A stretch of 64,000 nt of DNA from Mucilaginibacter arboris (lineage in GTDB: Bacteria > Bacteroidota > Bacteroidia > Sphingobacteriales > Sphingobacteriaceae): NCBI RefSeq assembly GCF_009754915.1, contig NZ_WPIK01000005.1, positions 124,001 to 188,000 on the forward strand, in the 5' to 3' direction. The translations under genes were made by a program, and so were the position numbers. Shown here piece after piece: positions 14,805-21,298 of the stretch. Position 1 is the first letter of the stretch. Each line of letters starts with the position of its first letter. A model generated the notes under the pieces. That model made no database searches. It saw only the letters and a list, made by a program, of their open reading frames with translations, and had not been told where the DNA came from.

Positions 14805-16673
14805 TTAGTTTTTTATACTATTTTCCAATAATAAAATCATTTCTTCTCCATGCTTTTTGATCTGGTCTGTATTCCAATCATTAACGCTGTAAGAAAACAT
14901 AATTTGTTGTTTTAAACTTTCCACTGATTGCTTTTTATTAAACTGTTCCTTCTTTGCATGAAAATTATAATCACTATATTTAGAATTACTGCTTTGACTT
15001 ATTAAACAAAGGTTTCCGAAATGATCAAGGATTTTTTTTTCGCTTTCAAATTCCTCATTAGTTTCACTTTCAATTATTTTTAAGCTATGGATATCTTTTT
15101 GAGGATGCAAGTGCTCTACAGAATTGTTTTGAGTAAATCTGAAACTGTTAAATCTACTATTGTCAAAAGGAATATTTGATTTAACGTTCGGGTTATTATA
15201 CTCCTTCCACAAAAGATAGTCTAAATAATTAAACAAATATCTGTGAGTACTCGTTCCGTTATTATATCCTAATTTTTTTGATTCTTTAAACCTCCTCTTA
15301 GCAATATTATTTAATTCTTCTAAAAACTCTTTATCAAAAATTTTGAATTCTTTTTTTTGAAAAAAAATCAGAATTTCTTTTAGCCAATTTTTATTATTAT
15401 TCCCAGGAAACGAAACTTGTAACATCGATTGAACCATTATAAATTCTTTGTTCTCGAATGCATCTTCAGTATTATCTTTACTAAAAGTATTTTTATAAGA
15501 AAGGATTCCATCAGAATTCTTCGGTTGTGATAGCTTCCATCCCCAATCATCATTTGCTTCTTCTCTTTTAATTATATATTTATCAAATAGCGTTCGATAC
15601 TTTAATAATGAATTTATAAATTCAATAGCAGGAGGTAATTTTCTTCCTGCTATTTTATTCGTATAGCCGAACTCGTCCAATAATTTTTTATCATCTAATG
15701 CTACTATAACACCTGAAATTTGAATGCTTAAAACTTGTAGCAAAAAATTGGGGAAATCGACAACTGATTTATATTTATCTTCCGTGACTGTCTCTTCTGT
15801 ATTCGGTTTTAAATTTTCGTTTTTTTGTAAAAGGTTGGATAACGTATTATCCTTGTTTGTTGCTAACGTACTTTCGTCTTTAATGCTTTCTATCAGCTTT
15901 AAATAATTTTCAGGTATTCCATCGTAGTTTCCACCAAATATTTCCTTTCTTTTATCCGGATTAAAGCAGCTTTGAATTGGTCTGTCCATTTGGGAGCAGG
16001 CATTCCAAATCAAAGCAAATTTCTCTCTAAGTTCTGCATCTATAGTTGATAAAAACCTCGCTTTCAATAGTTCATGCTTTTCAAGCTGTTCTCCTCTATT
16101 ATTCATTATTTCGAAATAATGGTTAATATCAGTATCTGGTGGAACTTCAATCCGTATTATCTTTACCTTATTATAGAAATAGTTAAAATAATTATCGAAC
16201 CCCTCTTTTTCTTTTATGGTAAAAAAGCTTTCAATAGTCCGAACAGCTTCCTTTATTTTTGGTAAGCCGAAATCTCTATCTGCATTTACTTGTTTTGCAT
16301 TTTCATAGTTAGTAAACAAGCTGCCTATAAAACTTTTTATTTCTTTCCTTGCATCAAAATGTAAGTTGGAATTTGGTATAGCTTCATTACTAAATTTTTC
16401 TCTATTACCATTAATAACACTATTGATTAAAGTAATAGTTGTGTGTCTTTGTTGTCCGTCTATAATTTCAAAATAACCATTGTCTTTCTTTTTATCCACT
16501 ACCAGTGTGCCTATATAATAATTACTATTAGCATTTGCTTTATACATATCCCAGACATCTTGCAGTAATTGATTAACTTCAATTACTCCCCATGCATAAT
16601 TTCTTTGGTAAAGCGGAATAATGTATTGATCCGAACCTAATAGTTTGGAAATAGTTAGTTCTGTAGGTTGCAT
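14805..16673 (-). CDS. DUF262-DUF1524 protein (GmrSD/SspE-like nuclease candidate)
   Basis: A 622-residue protein of the DUF262 superfamily, whose studied members (GmrSD, SspE, BrxU) are restriction-type defence enzymes. DUF262 motifs are intact: IPLYQRNYAW at 19-28, the GTLVV strand at 55-59 and DGQQR at 72-76, the ParB-like nucleotide-hydrolysing core. The C-terminal region carries the DUF1524 HNH-like motif: EHLHPQ at 520-525, then FGNLCLIS near 552 and an Asn-Ser-Lys-Tyr run after it, in the usual order. It starts three bases after the stop of the upstream DUF262 gene, so the pair is co-transcribed. Its composition is AT-rich and it lacks the 12-base motif, consistent with acquisition. 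Confidence 0.85.
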   Translation of the reverse strand: MQPTELTISKLLGSDQYIIPLYQRNYAWGVIEVNQLLQDVWDMYKANANSNYYIGTLVVDKKKDNGYFEIIDGQQRHTTITLINSVINGNREKFSNEAIPNSNLHFDARKEIKSFIGSLFTNYENAKQVNADRDFGLPKIKEAVRTIESFFTIKEKEGFDNYFNYFYNKVKIIRIEVPPDTDINHYFEIMNNRGEQLEKHELLKARFLSTIDAELREKFALIWNACSQMDRPIQSCFNPDKRKEIFGGNYDGIPENYLKLIESIKDESTLATNKDNTLSNLLQKNENLKPNTEETVTEDKYKSVVDFPNFLLQVLSIQISGVIVALDDKKLLDEFGYTNKIAGRKLPPAIEFINSLLKYRTLFDKYIIKREEANDDWGWKLSQPKNSDGILSYKNTFSKDNTEDAFENKEFIMVQSMLQVSFPGNNNKNWLKEILIFFQKKEFKIFDKEFLEELNNIAKRRFKESKKLGYNNGTSTHRYLFNYLDYLLWKEYNNPNVKSNIPFDNSRFNSFRFTQNNSVEHLHPQKDIHSLKIIESETNEEFESEKKILDHFGNLCLISQSSNSKYSDYNFHAKKEQFNKKQSVESLKQQIMFSYSVNDWNTDQIKKHGEEMILLLENSIKN

Positions 16674-16676
16674 ATT

Positions 16677-17966
16677 TTAATTATTGCAGGTAAATACTTC
16701 CTGTACTTCTGGAATTTCCTTTTTAATTGGTTGCGGTTGCGGTAGCTGAAGTTTTAATAAATCTTTCGGATAATAAGCGCCATTTATTCTTTTAAATATA
16801 TTCTCATTCTCCCGAATGTATTTATCAATGGAAGAATAACTAACTCTGTTCTGCATCAAACGAAGAGTGTATGCCCATTTATAAAATATCTTTGATATTT
16901 CGGCGAAGTTTATTTCTCCTTCTCCAAATTTATCGATATAGTGTAGTGCAGATGCTTCATACATTTCTCTTACATAAGTGTCACCAGTTCTATTGCACAA
17001 TTTATACAAACAATGTTTTTTGTAAAAACTATAGAATTCAGAATTATTATCCGTGAAAAGCTTAGCATATAAATCAGAGTAAAATGCTACATATTCAAAA
17101 AAACGTTTTCCATTTATTATCATTTGGGTTAATTGAAAAGGAAATTGAACTTTTAAACCAAAAGATTCATACATAGAATCGTTGGAATGTTGCTTGACAA
17201 GTGCATCGTTTAACATATATAATCTTAAATAGGGATAATTTTTATATTTATTCAGGTTCATCCCTTTAAATTCATCAATGTCATCCTTTTTGAAAGAACC
17301 GGCATTTTCACCTTTAGCCCATTTTCTTATACGATATATATACTTAGCTAAATTGTTTAGTAAGCCCACATTTGCTGCTTTCTCCCATTCAACTACACAA
17401 TTTAAACGTTCTTCTGAAGTATTGCTCTCCATCTCGCGAAGATGAAACGCTTTTAGCAAATCATAAGGTTCAAGTGCTTTTCCTCTTGCATTCTGAGAAT
17501 CAAATAGCTGAAAGGCTTCTGAAATATCATCTAACTCAATTTTAACAAATTCACAGCTTGTTAAAAGATATTCTTTAAATTTTGATTTTTGAACATCATT
17601 AAAACTACTGAACCATTCTTTGACCCTCGCATCATTGTTTCTTATATTATATATAGAATCAGCATGAGGAAATTCCTCATTTAATAATCGCATCCCTTTT
17701 TCACCTAAATAATTTAGAATTAGGGTAATAGTTACTAACCTTTGCTGCCCATCAACAATATCGAGTTTGCTATAGTTATTATGTAAGATAACCGTTCCAA
17801 TTCTATATTTTTCTTTTCCTTTATGTTGGCTATCCCAAATATCATCGAGTAGCTGTACTATATTTTTTTCTTTCCATTTGTAAGGTCTTTGATAATCTGG
17901 TATTGATAGCTCCATTTCAATAAGATCAGATAACATTATATACTCAGCTGGTACGTTTTTCTCCAT
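16677..17966 (-). CDS. DUF262 protein without nuclease tail
   Basis: A 429-residue partner of the following gene. It has the DUF262 core: IPDYQRPYKW at 22-31, the IGTVIL strand at 56-61 and DGQQR at 72-76. Unlike its neighbour it shows no HNH-like His-Asn motif near the C-terminus, which ends in a proline-rich stretch (LQLPQPQPIKKEIPEVQEV). A split arrangement, with one protein sensing or hydrolysing nucleotide and the other cutting, is an inference from the gene pair. The next gene upstream, 62 bases away in the same orientation, is a WYL regulator. Confidence 0.82.
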   Translation of the reverse strand: MEKNVPAEYIMLSDLIEMELSIPDYQRPYKWKEKNIVQLLDDIWDSQHKGKEKYRIGTVILHNNYSKLDIVDGQQRLVTITLILNYLGEKGMRLLNEEFPHADSIYNIRNNDARVKEWFSSFNDVQKSKFKEYLLTSCEFVKIELDDISEAFQLFDSQNARGKALEPYDLLKAFHLREMESNTSEERLNCVVEWEKAANVGLLNNLAKYIYRIRKWAKGENAGSFKKDDIDEFKGMNLNKYKNYPYLRLYMLNDALVKQHSNDSMYESFGLKVQFPFQLTQMIINGKRFFEYVAFYSDLYAKLFTDNNSEFYSFYKKHCLYKLCNRTGDTYVREMYEASALHYIDKFGEGEINFAEISKIFYKWAYTLRLMQNRVSYSSIDKYIRENENIFKRINGAYYPKDLLKLQLPQPQPIKKEIPEVQEVFTCNN

Positions 17967-18028
17967 ATTAAATTACCTTTAAATTTATTGTCTAATTCAT
18001 TTAGTTTTTCACATTCGTTAAATACTAT

Positions 18029-18928
18029 CTAATATAATTTAAACGCTCTTCGATGTGCTTCTTTTACCACATCAATTAAAGATGCCGGTTCTATAACCTT
18101 CACGCCATCGCCATAAGAAAGCAGCTCTTTAATAAAATCAAAGGCAATATATACTTTTAACTGAATGCGTAACTCCTTCTCGTTATTAATTAAAATTTCC
18201 TGGCTTTGGTGCAAAGACAAAGTTTTAACATATTTCCCCTGTTGAACTGTAAAAGACAAAATAACTTTTTCAGGAACTGAACCATCAATCGAACCGATGA
18301 TCCCAAAACTATGCTGGAATTTTTCTTTGGGATTTTGATTAATAGGATAAGTAAATTTCTTTTTGGTGATTTCTATTCCGGTAATCCTGTCCAAACCATA
18401 AGTTTTTATGGTATTATCTTTCAAGTCCTTCGCAATTAAATACCAGCGGTTTTTAAATTCTTTTAAAAAATAAGGATTGGTTTTTCTTAAACTTCGTTCT
18501 TCATGCCAAAAAGTTTGGTAGTTCAGATTAACTTGCAATCGGTTTTTTATGGCGTGTAATAAACCATGAAAGTTTTCCAACCCCAATGGTTTCTGTTTTT
18601 CAAAATCAAGATGTTCTGATAAAGCTGCATTTATATTCAAAGCGTTATAAGTATCAAAAGCCTCTAATAACCGATCACTAAAAAGTTCATTTTTAACTTT
18701 ATCAATTTCATATTTCTTTTTAGAAAAATTAAATTGGATGCTTCTTTTATATAATAAATTTATGGCATCCAAATCTCGCTTAAAAGTCTTTTTAGAAACT
18801 TTCAAATCAACTCCATGAAGCTTTGATTCTTTTTCCAGATCAGATTCAATTTCTTTAAGGGTTGCAGGTGATTTTTCTAATCTTCTGATAATGGCACTGT
18901 AACGCAATAGCATTTCTTTATTAGACAT
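18029..18928 (-). CDS. WYL-domain transcriptional regulator
   Basis: A 299-residue regulator with an N-terminal winged helix region (RYSAIIRRLEKSPATLKEIESDLEKE, followed by SKKTFKRDLDAIN), a central WYL domain (NPYFLKEFKNRWYLIAKD near residue 150 and GLDRITGIEI), and a C-terminal WCX-like extension. WYL proteins sense nucleic acids or nucleotides and frequently control defence operons. It precedes the two DUF262 genes in the same direction, so it is a likely controller of them. It contains one exact and one near copy of the 12-base motif. Confidence 0.85.
   Translation of the reverse strand: MSNKEMLLRYSAIIRRLEKSPATLKEIESDLEKESKLHGVDLKVSKKTFKRDLDAINLLYKRSIQFNFSKKKYEIDKVKNELFSDRLLEAFDTYNALNINAALSEHLDFEKQKPLGLENFHGLLHAIKNRLQVNLNYQTFWHEERSLRKTNPYFLKEFKNRWYLIAKDLKDNTIKTYGLDRITGIEITKKKFTYPINQNPKEKFQHSFGIIGSIDGSVPEKVILSFTVQQGKYVKTLSLHQSQEILINNEKELRIQLKVYIAFDFIKELLSYGDGVKVIEPASLIDVVKEAHRRAFKLY
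18738..18749 (-). repeat. TAAAAGAAGCAT dispersed motif, copy 13 (inside the WYL gene)
   Basis: Exact word in coding sequence on the gene strand, encoding Tyr-Lys-Arg-Ser-Ile. A one-mismatch copy in another frame lies at 18055-18066 (Val-Lys-Glu-Ala-His). Confidence 0.85.
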
Positions 18929-18991
18929 AAGTGCTGTTTTTTCTCAAATATAAATTTCAACTACGCCATAATAAGTCGCAGTTAGATTTAT

Positions 18992-19537
18992 TCAATAGCT
19001 TTTCTGATTTTGCCATTCTCCGTTTTTGTATAAAAACATCGACTGATCCCAAACCTTAATATCAATCCAAATGCTGTCAATATCAAAAATTTGTTGCATA
19101 ATGCCTGAATGATAAGCCAGTTCGTGCATCAAATAACAGCATCGTTTTTCCAACTGTGGTAACCAGCCGCTTTCCCGCCAATCTTCCCCATCGCAAAGCA
19201 GTCCCCAATCATTATTGCTAACATTGTGAAGGCCGAAGGGATGACGGGCCGTAAAAACAGGGTCGCCGTCAGAATATTTTGTGAAAAAAACTACTTCTGC
19301 AAAAACTTCATAATCAGTTATTAAGTTAGTTGTATCTTTTAACTTTTGCTCCATTGATAGTATTTCTTGTTTTGCCTGCTTTACAATTTTCTCTTCTGTA
19401 TTGGAAAGAAAAGCATTCAATTGATTTAAAAAAGCAACATGTTCGGTAGTTATTTCAAAGTCTCTCCAAGTTTGTACCCTTTCATTTTCAAGAGCTATTT
19501 TTAAAGCGTCTTCCCCTTTATTATCGTCTGATTTCAT
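18992..19537 (-). CDS. Protein of unknown function, linked to an AAA ATPase
   Basis: A 181-residue soluble protein that I cannot place in a named family. The N-terminal half is helical and charged (a helix around KIVKQAKQEILSMEQKLKD), and the C-terminal half is rich in Trp, Tyr, His and Cys (DWGLLCDGEDWRESGWLP, KRCCYLMHELAYH). It begins 19 bases downstream of the AAA ATPase gene and is surely co-transcribed with it, which suggests that it is the ATPase's client or partner. That link is inference from position only. Confidence 0.6.
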   Translation of the reverse strand: MKSDDNKGEDALKIALENERVQTWRDFEITTEHVAFLNQLNAFLSNTEEKIVKQAKQEILSMEQKLKDTTNLITDYEVFAEVVFFTKYSDGDPVFTARHPFGLHNVSNNDWGLLCDGEDWRESGWLPQLEKRCCYLMHELAYHSGIMQQIFDIDSIWIDIKVWDQSMFLYKNGEWQNQKSY

Positions 19538-19556
19538 AATTGATTGTTAATGTTGC

Positions 19557-20681
19557 TTAAATACTATTCGCCCGAAACCCAATAACATTACTTCTTTTAG
19601 CAGGATAAAAACCTTTTTCCTCCTGATTATAAATGGCAGTAAGTAGTGCAGGCGAATTGAAAGTTGTTGTAAAACCTAATTTATTGGAAAGCGATTGCGC
19701 TTTGTCGGCTTCCAGTTCTTTAAACTCATACTTAGCAATTAACCTTCCTTTTCTTAGCAAAGCATTATCAACTTTTGATAAATCAGTATTGAAAGAACAA
19801 ATAACCTGGATGTTCAAACAGTCGGAAAGTAAACCATCAGAAATATTAAGCAATGCCGAAACGGGAGAGTTTTCATCCTGATTTCTGTCAACAACTATAT
19901 TTTCAGCATCTTCAATTACAAAGATGGAATTAGGATTATTGATCAGAATAGAGATCAAATCGGGACTGGTAATTGCCGCTGCCATATTTGGAGGCAGAAA
20001 AATAATGCTTTTTTTAACAGATGAAATTAAGTATCTGATGTAAGAGGTTTTGCCCGTTCCGGGTTTGCCATGCAGAAGGATTAAACCTTTATCATTTTTT
20101 TTGGAAAGTCTTTTTAATATGGTTTGATGGACTTCTTTAAAATCATCATTGTAATTGCTTTCAATACTTAGTTTGGGCTTTGTTATCACTAAAGATTTTT
20201 TAATGATACCTGTAGCTGTATTTACAATCAAGCTCATTTCGGGCTTGGATTTTCCTTTTACAAAGCGATGGATCCCGTAAATAATTTTTTCAATTTTTGA
20301 AATTTCTGTTTTTCTGAAAAGGAAGCGGACAATACATTCAGTTGCATCAAAATCAACAATCAGATCATCATACAGAAAATAAAAAATATCGTCGAAATTA
20401 GCTTTTTTGCTGTTGTTGAGATACCTTTTATCATAATAGCAGTTTTTTATCTCACTGATGTAATGCTTTAAAAACCAATTGTTCGCTTTTTTACAATCTA
20501 TATTTATTTCGTGGACGAAATTAGGTATGGCTTTAAAATGGGCAACAAACAAGGTAAACTCATTTAAATATGAACCGCGCCTTGGGGCAAATACTTCCGA
20601 CAAGTCCATTGCTCCATAAATTTTTTCCGTTTCAAAAATCTGGGTAGGAAAGTTTTTGAGATTGATTATTTTTGATGGCAT
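19557..20681 (-). CDS. AAA+ ATPase (Bcs1-like AAA core, novel N-terminal region)
   Basis: A 374-residue ATPase. The AAA core has Walker A LLHGKPGTGKTSY, Walker B SIFVIEDAEN, a sensor-1 stretch IQVICSFNTDLSKVDNALL and the arginine-finger context RKGRL, most like the Bcs1/CDC48 branch. The ~190-residue N-terminal part is not recognisable and likely specifies the substrate. ATG at 20681 (MPSKIINLKNF) is preferred over the upstream ATG at 20735, which would add an unlikely hydrophobic leader. It is followed after 19 bases by the 181-residue gene and lies in the defence-like island. Confidence 0.8.
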   Translation of the reverse strand: MPSKIINLKNFPTQIFETEKIYGAMDLSEVFAPRRGSYLNEFTLFVAHFKAIPNFVHEINIDCKKANNWFLKHYISEIKNCYYDKRYLNNSKKANFDDIFYFLYDDLIVDFDATECIVRFLFRKTEISKIEKIIYGIHRFVKGKSKPEMSLIVNTATGIIKKSLVITKPKLSIESNYNDDFKEVHQTILKRLSKKNDKGLILLHGKPGTGKTSYIRYLISSVKKSIIFLPPNMAAAITSPDLISILINNPNSIFVIEDAENIVVDRNQDENSPVSALLNISDGLLSDCLNIQVICSFNTDLSKVDNALLRKGRLIAKYEFKELEADKAQSLSNKLGFTTTFNSPALLTAIYNQEEKGFYPAKRSNVIGFRANSI

Positions 20682-20786
20682 CGTTATTACGTTTATTATT
20701 TTTTGTAAAAGTAGAATTGAGCTGCGCCAAAACATGTCGTAGTAAAAAAATCATGTAATTGCTTTTAAGTAATGGAGGGGGATAGA

Positions 20787-21017
20787 ATGAATACAAATTT
20801 TAAATTAACTTCAATAGAATCTAAGCAGGATTATAAAATAGCAACTGCCAGATATGAAGAAATTAAGCATGCACCAAAAGGTTCTGATGAACATAAAGAA
20901 AAACTTTTGTTAGTACACTTAATATCTGAGTATGAAAACGCACAATGGGATTTGCCGGAAGTAAGTTTGGTAGAATTAAATAAAATCTGGATAGAAGATT
21001 ATGGAAGCAACGCTTAG
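20787..21017 (+). CDS. HigA-like N-terminal domain protein lacking the HTH
   Basis: A 76-residue protein resembling the segment that precedes the DNA-binding domain of HigA-type antitoxins: IESKQDYKIATARYEEIKHA, then KGSDEHKEKLLLVHLISEYE. In HigA an XRE helix-turn-helix follows, but here the protein ends with WIEDYGSNA. ATG 20787 is preferred because a purine-rich AGGGGGATAGA precedes it; ATG 20772 is possible. Its 3' end overlaps the DUF2442 gene by 17 bases, so the two are coupled. No HigB-like toxin is adjacent. Confidence 0.6.
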   Translation: MNTNFKLTSIESKQDYKIATARYEEIKHAPKGSDEHKEKLLLVHLISEYENAQWDLPEVSLVELNKIWIEDYGSNA

Positions 21018-21234
21018 CATTACCAACGTTAGTTTCATCAATGAAAACACCCTTGTTCTCGACCTTTCCAACAAACGTTCCATCCAAATTCCTTTAGACG
21101 AATTTCCAGATATTGCTGCATTGAACACTCAAGAAAAAGAAGATTTTGAAATTATTGACGATGAATATTTATCGTTTTTGGCGATTGATGAAATTTATTC
21201 TCTAAAAGATTTGATCGGCTATAAAAATCAATAG
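21001..21234 (+). CDS. DUF2442 protein
   Basis: A 77-residue protein of the DUF2442 family, identified by the central NKRSIQIPLDEFPDIAALNTQEKEDFEII followed by FLAIDEIYSLKDLIG. DUF2442 genes often lie beside toxin-antitoxin-like small genes; the molecular role is unknown to me. It overlaps the HigA-like gene by 17 bases and is followed by the promoter of the ribosomal protein operon. Confidence 0.72.
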   Translation: MEATLSITNVSFINENTLVLDLSNKRSIQIPLDEFPDIAALNTQEKEDFEIIDDEYLSFLAIDEIYSLKDLIGYKNQ

Positions 21235-21298
21235 GAAGTTCCCTCTTCCCCCCAAACTCCCATACTTCTTTTACCACCAAAAAATTTACACACAACTC

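What the first reader, a model, noticed from the sequence alone, without database searches (positions are those of the whole stretch)
14805..18928. Two-gene DUF262 system with WYL regulator: candidate defence module
A DUF262-only protein and a DUF262-DUF1524 protein are encoded three bases apart, behind a WYL regulator in the same direction. GmrSD, SspE and BrxU are single or differently split DUF262-DUF1524 enzymes. Here two complete DUF262 cores exist with one HNH-like tail, suggesting a heteromeric enzyme. I see no phosphorothioation or BREX genes beside it, so it may act alone, perhaps against modified phage DNA.
Basis: partly seen in the sequence, partly recalled or inferred. Interest (0 to 1): 0.62.

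Follow-up and report, generated by a model that had tools for sequence, protein, structure and literature searches.

The report
TgvAB-type two-protein phage restriction system
A Bacteroidota genome carries a two-gene anti-phage enzyme of a kind already described in cholera bacteria (TgvAB), which probably cuts chemically modified phage DNA; the pair is real and widespread, but not a new type of system, and the neighbouring regulator probably belongs to another gene.

Summary
In detail: gene A (16677-17966, DUF262 + DUF7834) and gene B (14805-16673, DUF262 + DUF1524) lie three bases apart behind a WYL gene. The two-DUF262/one-HNH design is not new: it was published in 2024 as TgvAB and, in a second form, in 2025 as GrwAB. 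In TgvAB both proteins and both DGQQR motifs are needed against T-even phages. Among the 80 best named loci kept from a genome scan, B follows A directly in all 78 where the contig goes on, and A and B distances correlate at r 0.93. Type I restriction genes are neighbours in 15-19%. The WYL gene is probably not part of the system: it is the first upstream gene in none of 78 loci found to have one, while WYL genes stand by homologues of the window's AAA gene in 4 of 17 loci. One addition: A's tail, DUF7834, matches between the two GmrSD domains in two single-chain relatives, so A looks like a GmrSD chain without its nuclease, which fits a heterodimer. The V. cholerae proteins were not compared directly.

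The parts
14805..16673 (-). tgvB-like gene: DUF262 (GmrSD_N, aa 9-208), helical middle, DUF1524 His-Me nuclease (GmrSD_C, aa 473-613); QR 23-24, DGQQR 72-76, FxxxN 187-191, EHLHPQ with H521, GNL N554, NS N563
   Evidence: model mean pLDDT 86.3; aligned along its whole length with SspE, DndI and BrxU
16677..17966 (-). tgvA-like gene: DUF262 (aa 14-175) + helical DUF7834 (aa 187-414), no nuclease signature; QR 26-27, DGQQR 72-76, FxxxN 155-159
   Evidence: model mean pLDDT 90.1; whole-chain alignments with DndI and SspE
18029..18928 (-). WYL-WCX regulator gene, 62 nt upstream of tgvA; probably part of the AAA gene's module rather than of the restriction system
18992..19537 (-). 181-aa protein without a clear family, between the WYL and AAA genes
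   Evidence: no homologue in the loci
19557..20735 (-). AAA ATPase gene (392 aa); homologues in 17 of 395 sampled genomes of the phylum, own included
14807..20785 (.). inserted block between the aminotransferase gene and rplM, absent from this site in two genomes of the same genus (approximate ends); gene GC 0.29-0.36 against 0.45 (aminotransferase) and 0.41 (rplM-tsf)
   Evidence: A, WYL and AAA also have no match elsewhere in those two genomes

Best explanation
[quoted passage not shown] Shown in print for V. cholerae TgvAB, not here: both proteins are needed, both DGQQR motifs are needed, the DUF1524 histidine and asparagine are needed, and T-even phages with sugar-modified hydroxymethylcytosine are hit. 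Inferred here from anatomy: A is a GmrSD-like chain that keeps the sensor/NTPase and the helical middle but has no nuclease; B carries sensor, middle and nuclease; the two act together, perhaps as a heterodimer built like the homodimers reported for BrxU and DndI, with NTP hydrolysis at the DUF262 sites releasing B's nuclease on modified foreign DNA. The substrate in this host is not known, and the WYL gene probably does not belong to the system. The confidence given is for the kind of system and for joint action of A and B; the heterodimer step alone stands at about 0.5.
For: Domains above cut-off. QR, DGQQR and FxxxN intact in both proteins, His-Me residues in B. B directly follows A in 11 of 11 loci with a full A (of 17 loci examined) and in 78 of 78 named loci where the contig continues, of 80 kept. 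Mantel r 0.93 over 77 pairs, highest of 2000 permutations 0.21. The EHxx[PA][QR] signature is in 0 of 86 A and 78 of 80 B sequences. Two single-chain GmrSD enzymes have DUF7834 between GmrSD_N and GmrSD_C, one at 27.5 bits (cut-off 27), one at 24.4, below it. Neighbours: HsdS domain in 15 of 78 first-upstream genes, HsdM_N in 11 of 72 second-upstream, HSDR_N in 11 of 69 first-downstream; one E. coli plasmid has hsdM-hsdS-A-B-IS30-hsdR, the V. cholerae order but for the IS. Functions from PMC11411939 (section 9 and passages) and PMC12137116 (passages).
Against: VC1767 and VC1766 were not compared directly; the assignment rests on architecture, motifs, gene order and a chain of homologues. The pair here is not inside a type I operon. 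The 80 loci are the best matches to the A profile, so remoter A homologues are not represented. Identity to the nearest sampled homologues is about 40%, so the target may differ. PMC11411939 states that TgvA resembles GmrSD only in its DUF262 domain, which my DUF7834 reading partly contradicts. A's structural match was made with the whole chain (DndI Z 14.0, rmsd 6.0; SspE Z 15.6, rmsd 17.8; BrxU Z 7.1, rmsd 15.3), the tool warns that mostly helical models reach about 14 without a clear relative, and the helical half was not searched alone. No complex was modelled.
Confidence: 0.82

Rival explanations
1. A is not a structural half of the enzyme but an accessory: it overcomes a phage inhibitor of B, or restrains B until a modified base is met. 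PMC11411939 names the first and leaves a regulatory role open. (This rivals the heterodimer step, not the family assignment.)
For: Some GmrSD enzymes are inhibited by an injected phage protein, and the need for TgvA is unexplained (PMC11411939 section 9).
Against: A keeps DGQQR in 85 of 86 sequences; the DGQQR of TgvA is itself needed in the published work; A keeps the domain that lies between sensor and nuclease in single chains.
Confidence: 0.22
2. The pair senses phosphorothioate rather than a modified base, like SspE and DndI, using phosphorothioation genes elsewhere in the genome.
For: The closest solved structures are DndI, SspE and a DUF262 protein without a more telling name (20yv); both proteins keep P-x-Y-Q (A 23-26, B 20-23), which in DndI (P23, Y25, Q26) lies in the sensing patch (PMC11662687 passages).
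Against: No DndB (PF14072) in the genome. The patch lies in a motif shared by these enzymes generally, so it does not discriminate. DndCDE and SspBCD were not searched.
Confidence: 0.06
3. The WYL gene is a BrxR-like repressor of tgvAB, and WYL-tgvA-tgvB is one regulated defence operon in this genome.
For: Same strand, 62 nt upstream; WYL-WCX architecture; in a published survey 37 of 210 BrxR-associated defence systems were type IV restriction (PMC9122601 passages). AAA homologues, to which I assign the WYL gene, are over-represented in genomes with a full A: 3 of 6 against 14 of the other 389 (P 0.001, or 0.014 without the own genome), so the block may be a mixed defence island after all.
Against: A WYL gene is the first upstream gene in 0 of 78 named loci with an upstream ORF, by a WYL model built from few sequences. 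WYL matches lie anywhere in 4 of 87 loci: L097 and L100 on the same strand within 1.5 kb upstream with two ORFs between, L080 0.7 kb and L117 about 6.6 kb downstream of B. WYL lies within 1.3 kb of the AAA homologue in 4 of 17 other AAA loci, none of them with tgvAB. The palindrome upstream of the WYL gene is no better than chance (417 of 1000 base shuffles).
Confidence: 0.25
4. The pair is inactive or has no defence role in this host.
For: In several homologous loci A or B is split into pieces or shortened (L068, L070, L075, L077, L080, L084, L124, L126).
Against: Both frames are intact in the window and the motif residues checked are kept.
Confidence: 0.06

Closest known systems
TgvAB of Vibrio cholerae VPI-2 (VC1767-VC1766)
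   Same: Two adjacent genes in the same order; both proteins with N-terminal DUF262 and QR, DGQQR, FxxxN; DUF1524 nuclease only in the second (PMC11411939; window)
   Different: Not inside a type I restriction operon (optional in print: 1,341 tgvAB hits against 79 five-gene clusters); target unknown; no direct sequence comparison made; a WYL gene stands upstream
GrwAB of West African-South American V. cholerae
   Same: Two DUF262 proteins, one with DUF1524 (PMC12137116 and PMC12409362 passages)
   Different: The nuclease-less partner GrwB is described with an extended C-terminus of several unknown domains; the window's A is 429 aa with one further domain
Single-chain GmrSD enzymes (Eco94GmrSD, BrxU)
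   Same: DUF262, helical middle, DUF1524 (window B; B aligns with BrxU at Z 10.3, rmsd 9.2, 393 residues)
   Different: One chain is enough there; here a second nuclease-less chain accompanies it
SspE and DndI (phosphorothioate-sensing)
   Same: Top structure matches of both models; DndI is a homodimer in the crystal (PMC11662687)
   Different: They work with a phosphorothioation system; no DndB here
HEC-06 of PADLOC (Hma-embedded GmrSD-like protein)
   Same: Best PADLOC model for both proteins (B 7.9e-38, A 4.7e-28)
   Different: Functions on its own according to PMC11411939; the PADLOC version used is of 2023, before TgvAB was published

Membership tests
GmrSD family (type IV restriction) | DUF262 (PF03235) with DGQQR | tested here: met
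   Both proteins over the cut-off; motif in 85 of 86 A and 79 of 80 B sequences
GmrSD family (type IV restriction) | DUF1524 (PF07510) His-Me nuclease in the same system | tested here: met
   B 57.9 bits against cut-off 23; H521, N554, N563 kept
TgvAB | Adjacent A (DUF262, no DUF1524) then B (DUF262 + DUF1524) | tested here: met
   Window; 11 of 11 and 78 of 78 loci where the contig goes on
TgvAB | QR, DGQQR and FxxxN in both proteins; H...N...N in B | tested here: met
TgvAB | Homology of both proteins to VC1767 and VC1766 themselves | not tested
   The V. cholerae sequences were not obtained; the Vibrio genus search failed. Nearest stand-in: a Vibrio aerogenes plasmid pair, A 40% identical, next to hsdR-hsdM-hsdS
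TgvAB | Both proteins required; restricts phages with sugar-modified cytosine | not testable with these tools
   needs a phage assay
GrwAB | Nuclease-less partner with extended multi-domain C-terminus | tested here: not met
   A is 429 aa with DUF262 + DUF7834 only; 64 of 64 aligned A sequences match just these two Pfam families. No direct comparison with GrwB
BrxR/CapW-type WYL regulators | WYL + WCX domains | tested here: met
BrxR/CapW-type WYL regulators | N-terminal winged helix-turn-helix | tested here: inconclusive
   No Pfam match in the N-terminal part; no model made
BrxR/CapW-type WYL regulators | Inverted-repeat operator upstream | tested here: inconclusive
   Best palindrome matched by 417 of 1000 shuffles; not all BrxR homologues have one (PMC9122601)
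Phosphorothioate-dependent SspE/DndI systems | Accompanying phosphorothioation genes | tested here: inconclusive
   No DndB in the genome; other dnd/ssp genes not searched

The most novel reading that the evidence does not exclude
In the TgvAB kind the second chain is a GmrSD enzyme whose nuclease has been lost: DUF7834, a family of unknown function, is the helical middle that in single-chain enzymes links the DUF262 sensor to the DUF1524 nuclease. TgvAB would then be an obligate heterodimer with two sensor/NTPase sites and one nuclease, answering why TgvB alone does not work.
Probability: 0.5. Interest if true: 0.4.

Novelty: new member of a known kind. Interest (0 to 1): 0.22.

Why it matters
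It extends a recently described two-protein type IV restriction system to a further Bacteroidota genome and shows, on the loci sampled, that the pair is inherited as a unit across distant bacteria. The useful addition is a concrete, testable answer to an open point in the TgvAB paper, namely what TgvA is: a nuclease-less GmrSD chain. Separating the WYL gene from the system weakens a tempting operon reading.

Tried and rejected
WYL as the pair's own regulator: judged unlikely, not excluded. WYL is not among the families shown for the neighbours, but those lists show 25 of 99, 95 and 92 families, so a single WYL neighbour could be hidden. Five of the 80 loci have under 700 nt upstream of A (L069, L071, L090, L106, L112). 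A palindrome upstream of the WYL gene (18959-18983, 9 of 12 pairs) looked like an operator, but 417 of 1000 base shuffles scored as well; dropped.

A hidden nuclease in A's tail: no His-Me signature by pattern in 86 A sequences, and no strand of three or more residues in that half of the model; rejected.

BREX in the genome: one PglZ-domain protein, open frame 521 aa, on contig C1. Its length fits PorX, a Bacteroidota response regulator (recalled, not tested). No other BREX gene was searched.

Placing the pair by residue numbers: in V. cholerae TgvB H571 and N602 are 31 apart. Taking N602 as the last asparagine of the motif (the passage does not say which), 19 of 79 B sequences have 31, 34 have 32, and the window has 42, the largest. 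This does not bring the window closer to V. cholerae.

A genus search around Vibrio failed on the kind of handle and was not repeated. Papers with DUF7834: none in the library. Papers naming TgvAB: 4. Read as passages: PMC11411939 (also section 9), PMC12409362, PMC12137116, PMC4619093, PMC10952713, PMC9122601, PMC11662687; listing only: PMC13268207 and the other papers. The Gomez and Waters study was seen only as cited there.

Rows dropped: L136-L138 (partial matches) were not examined; L050 appears to be the same contig as L039 (same length) and was left out of the Mantel test but not of the counts; proteins outside set lengths, and some within, were left out of alignments A6 and A7; L152 was brought in by the WYL search and is not in the 4 of 17. 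L200 ends about 1.1 kb beyond its AAA gene, so a WYL gene there could be missed.
Full report
What is there. The window holds three minus-strand genes at the stated places: B 14805-16673, A 16677-17966 and a WYL gene 18029-18928, with three bases between A and B. Pfam finds GmrSD_N (DUF262) in both A and B, GmrSD_C (DUF1524) in B only, DUF7834 in the rest of A, and WYL plus WCX in the regulator, all above the curated cut-offs. PF03235 finds no other DUF262 protein in the draft genome.

Surroundings. In two genomes of the same genus these genes are missing between the aminotransferase gene and the rplM region. The alignments break off at window 14813 and 14806, at the stop of B, and resume at 20786 in one genome and 21009 in the other. 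In their place one has about 0.6 kb and the other about 2.3 kb with a histidine kinase/response regulator pair. The inserted block thus holds B, A, WYL, a 181-aa protein without a clear family and an AAA ATPase. GC is 0.29-0.36 in its genes against 0.45 and 0.41 in the flanking genes.

How common and how fixed the pair is. Of 17 loci first examined, 11 have a full A homologue and all 11 have B directly downstream; two others (L037, L038) are single-chain enzymes and four were fetched for synteny only. B follows directly in 78, split or shortened in some; in the other two (L089, L109) the contig ends. Of 10 viral-contig loci, 7 were examined: 5 have the pair and 2 end at A. The named hosts span several phyla (record titles include Bacteroidota, Pseudomonadota, Verrucomicrobia, Planctomycetota, Treponema, Helicobacter and a Methanobrevibacter MAG; phylum names partly recalled; MAG contigs may be misplaced). 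Distances among A and among B proteins correlate at r 0.93 over 77 pairs, window included, against at most 0.21 in 2000 permutations. In a sample of 395 genomes of the phylum, own included, 46 match the A profile at E 1e-15 or better, most through the DUF262 part alone; a full A is in 6 (G000, G014, G090, G193, G202, G401). On plasmids, 1003 of 72,556 records match A by protein, 876 over at least 80% of its length; 914 are Klebsiella.

What is known. PMC11411939 (section 9 and passages) describes TgvAB: TgvA with DUF262, TgvB with DUF262 and DUF1524, both needed for protection against T-even phages, DGQQR of both and H571/N602 of TgvB essential, and 1,341 tgvAB hits in 41,142 genomes, Bacteroides fragilis among them. 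My loci repeat the published context: HsdS domain in 15 of 78 first-upstream neighbours, HsdM_N in 11 of 72 second-upstream, HSDR_N in 11 of 69 first-downstream. One E. coli plasmid shows hsdM-hsdS-A-B-hsdR with an IS30 before hsdR; a Citrobacter plasmid has the pair beside methyltransferase, helicase and AbpA genes, a Klebsiella plasmid between a type I system and Hhe, a Vibrio aerogenes plasmid after hsdR-hsdM-hsdS, an Aliarcobacter plasmid between a PD-(D/E)XK nuclease gene and a UvrD-helicase gene. The window's pair is not inside a type I operon; two N6_Mtase matches, one full-length, lie on other contigs.

Mechanism. The sensor and nuclease residues checked are kept. The DUF262 parts of A and B are homologous over about 210 residues (27% identity, E 2e-15; profile probability 99.7%), but the nuclease signature is in 0 of 86 A and 78 of 80 B sequences. 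The new point is A's second half. In two single-chain enzymes (L037, L038) DUF7834 matches between GmrSD_N and GmrSD_C, one just over and one below its cut-off. A's model (pLDDT 90.1) has DndI as best Foldseek match (E 8e-07) and aligns with it over 351 residues (Z 14.0, rmsd 6.0), with SspE at Z 15.6 but rmsd 17.8, with BrxU at Z 7.1, rmsd 15.3. These are whole-chain alignments in which the DUF262 half shares the credit; the tool's note says mostly helical models reach about 14 without a clear relative, and the helical half was not searched alone. So the argument rests mainly on the sequence match and the shared order of domains. DndI is a homodimer in its crystal (PMC11662687 passage) and BrxU is normally a dimer that becomes monomeric on NTP binding (PMC10952713 passage). 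I infer a heterodimer in which A replaces one half. No complex was modelled.

The WYL gene. But a WYL gene is the first upstream gene in none of the 78 named tgvAB loci that have an upstream ORF. WYL matches occur in 4 of 87 loci: L097 and L100 within 1.5 kb upstream on the same strand with two ORFs between, L080 and L117 downstream. The search model was built from few sequences and may miss distant WYL proteins. Of 17 other loci with the AAA gene, 4 have a WYL gene within 1.3 kb (L202, L203, L208, L209); one of the 17 has tgvAB (L033) and it is not among the four. In L202 the order AAA, small protein, WYL on one strand is that of the window, though its small protein is an RNase_T exonuclease and shows no similarity to the 181-aa protein here. 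The three nearest WYL relatives (53%, 44%, 35%) have no A or B homologue in the stretches fetched. Against a clean separation: AAA homologues occur in 3 of the 6 sampled genomes with a full A and in 14 of the other 389 (P 0.001, 0.014 without the own genome), about 7 kb from the pair in G193 but about 0.9 Mb away in G090. The AAA gene may itself belong to defence islands.

Verdict. A real, intact, inserted TgvAB-type restriction pair; a new member of a known kind. Its modest interest lies in the DUF7834 observation, which makes the open question of TgvA's role testable.

Noticed in passing
19557-20735 (-), with 18992-19537 and 18029-18928: AAA ATPase gene with homologues in 17 of 395 sampled genomes of the phylum, beside a WYL gene in 4 of 17 other loci and beside varied genes: RNase_T exonuclease (L202, L152), PD-(D/E)XK_4 nuclease (L211, L213), RtcB (L201). 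May be a separate nucleic-acid-related module.
   Followed up: partly
14807-20785: Variable site between the aminotransferase gene and rplM: three same-genus genomes carry three different contents.
   Followed up: partly
20814-21236: Two small plus-strand ORFs before rplM that resemble, by eye and from recall, toxin-antitoxin-type or DUF2442-type proteins; DNA alignment reaches the first in one same-genus genome and the second in both.
   Followed up: no
G000 contig C1, 263238-263816: PglZ-domain protein (open frame 521 aa), probably PorX of type IX secretion (recalled) and not BREX.
   Followed up: no
L047 and the plasmid hits: 914 of 1003 plasmid records with an A match are Klebsiella; the one examined has the pair between a type I system and the anti-phage gene hhe.
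   Followed up: no
L203 (G201): An AAA homologue with a WYL gene about 9 kb from a single-chain DUF262 gene (open frame 622 aa) on the same contig.
   Followed up: no
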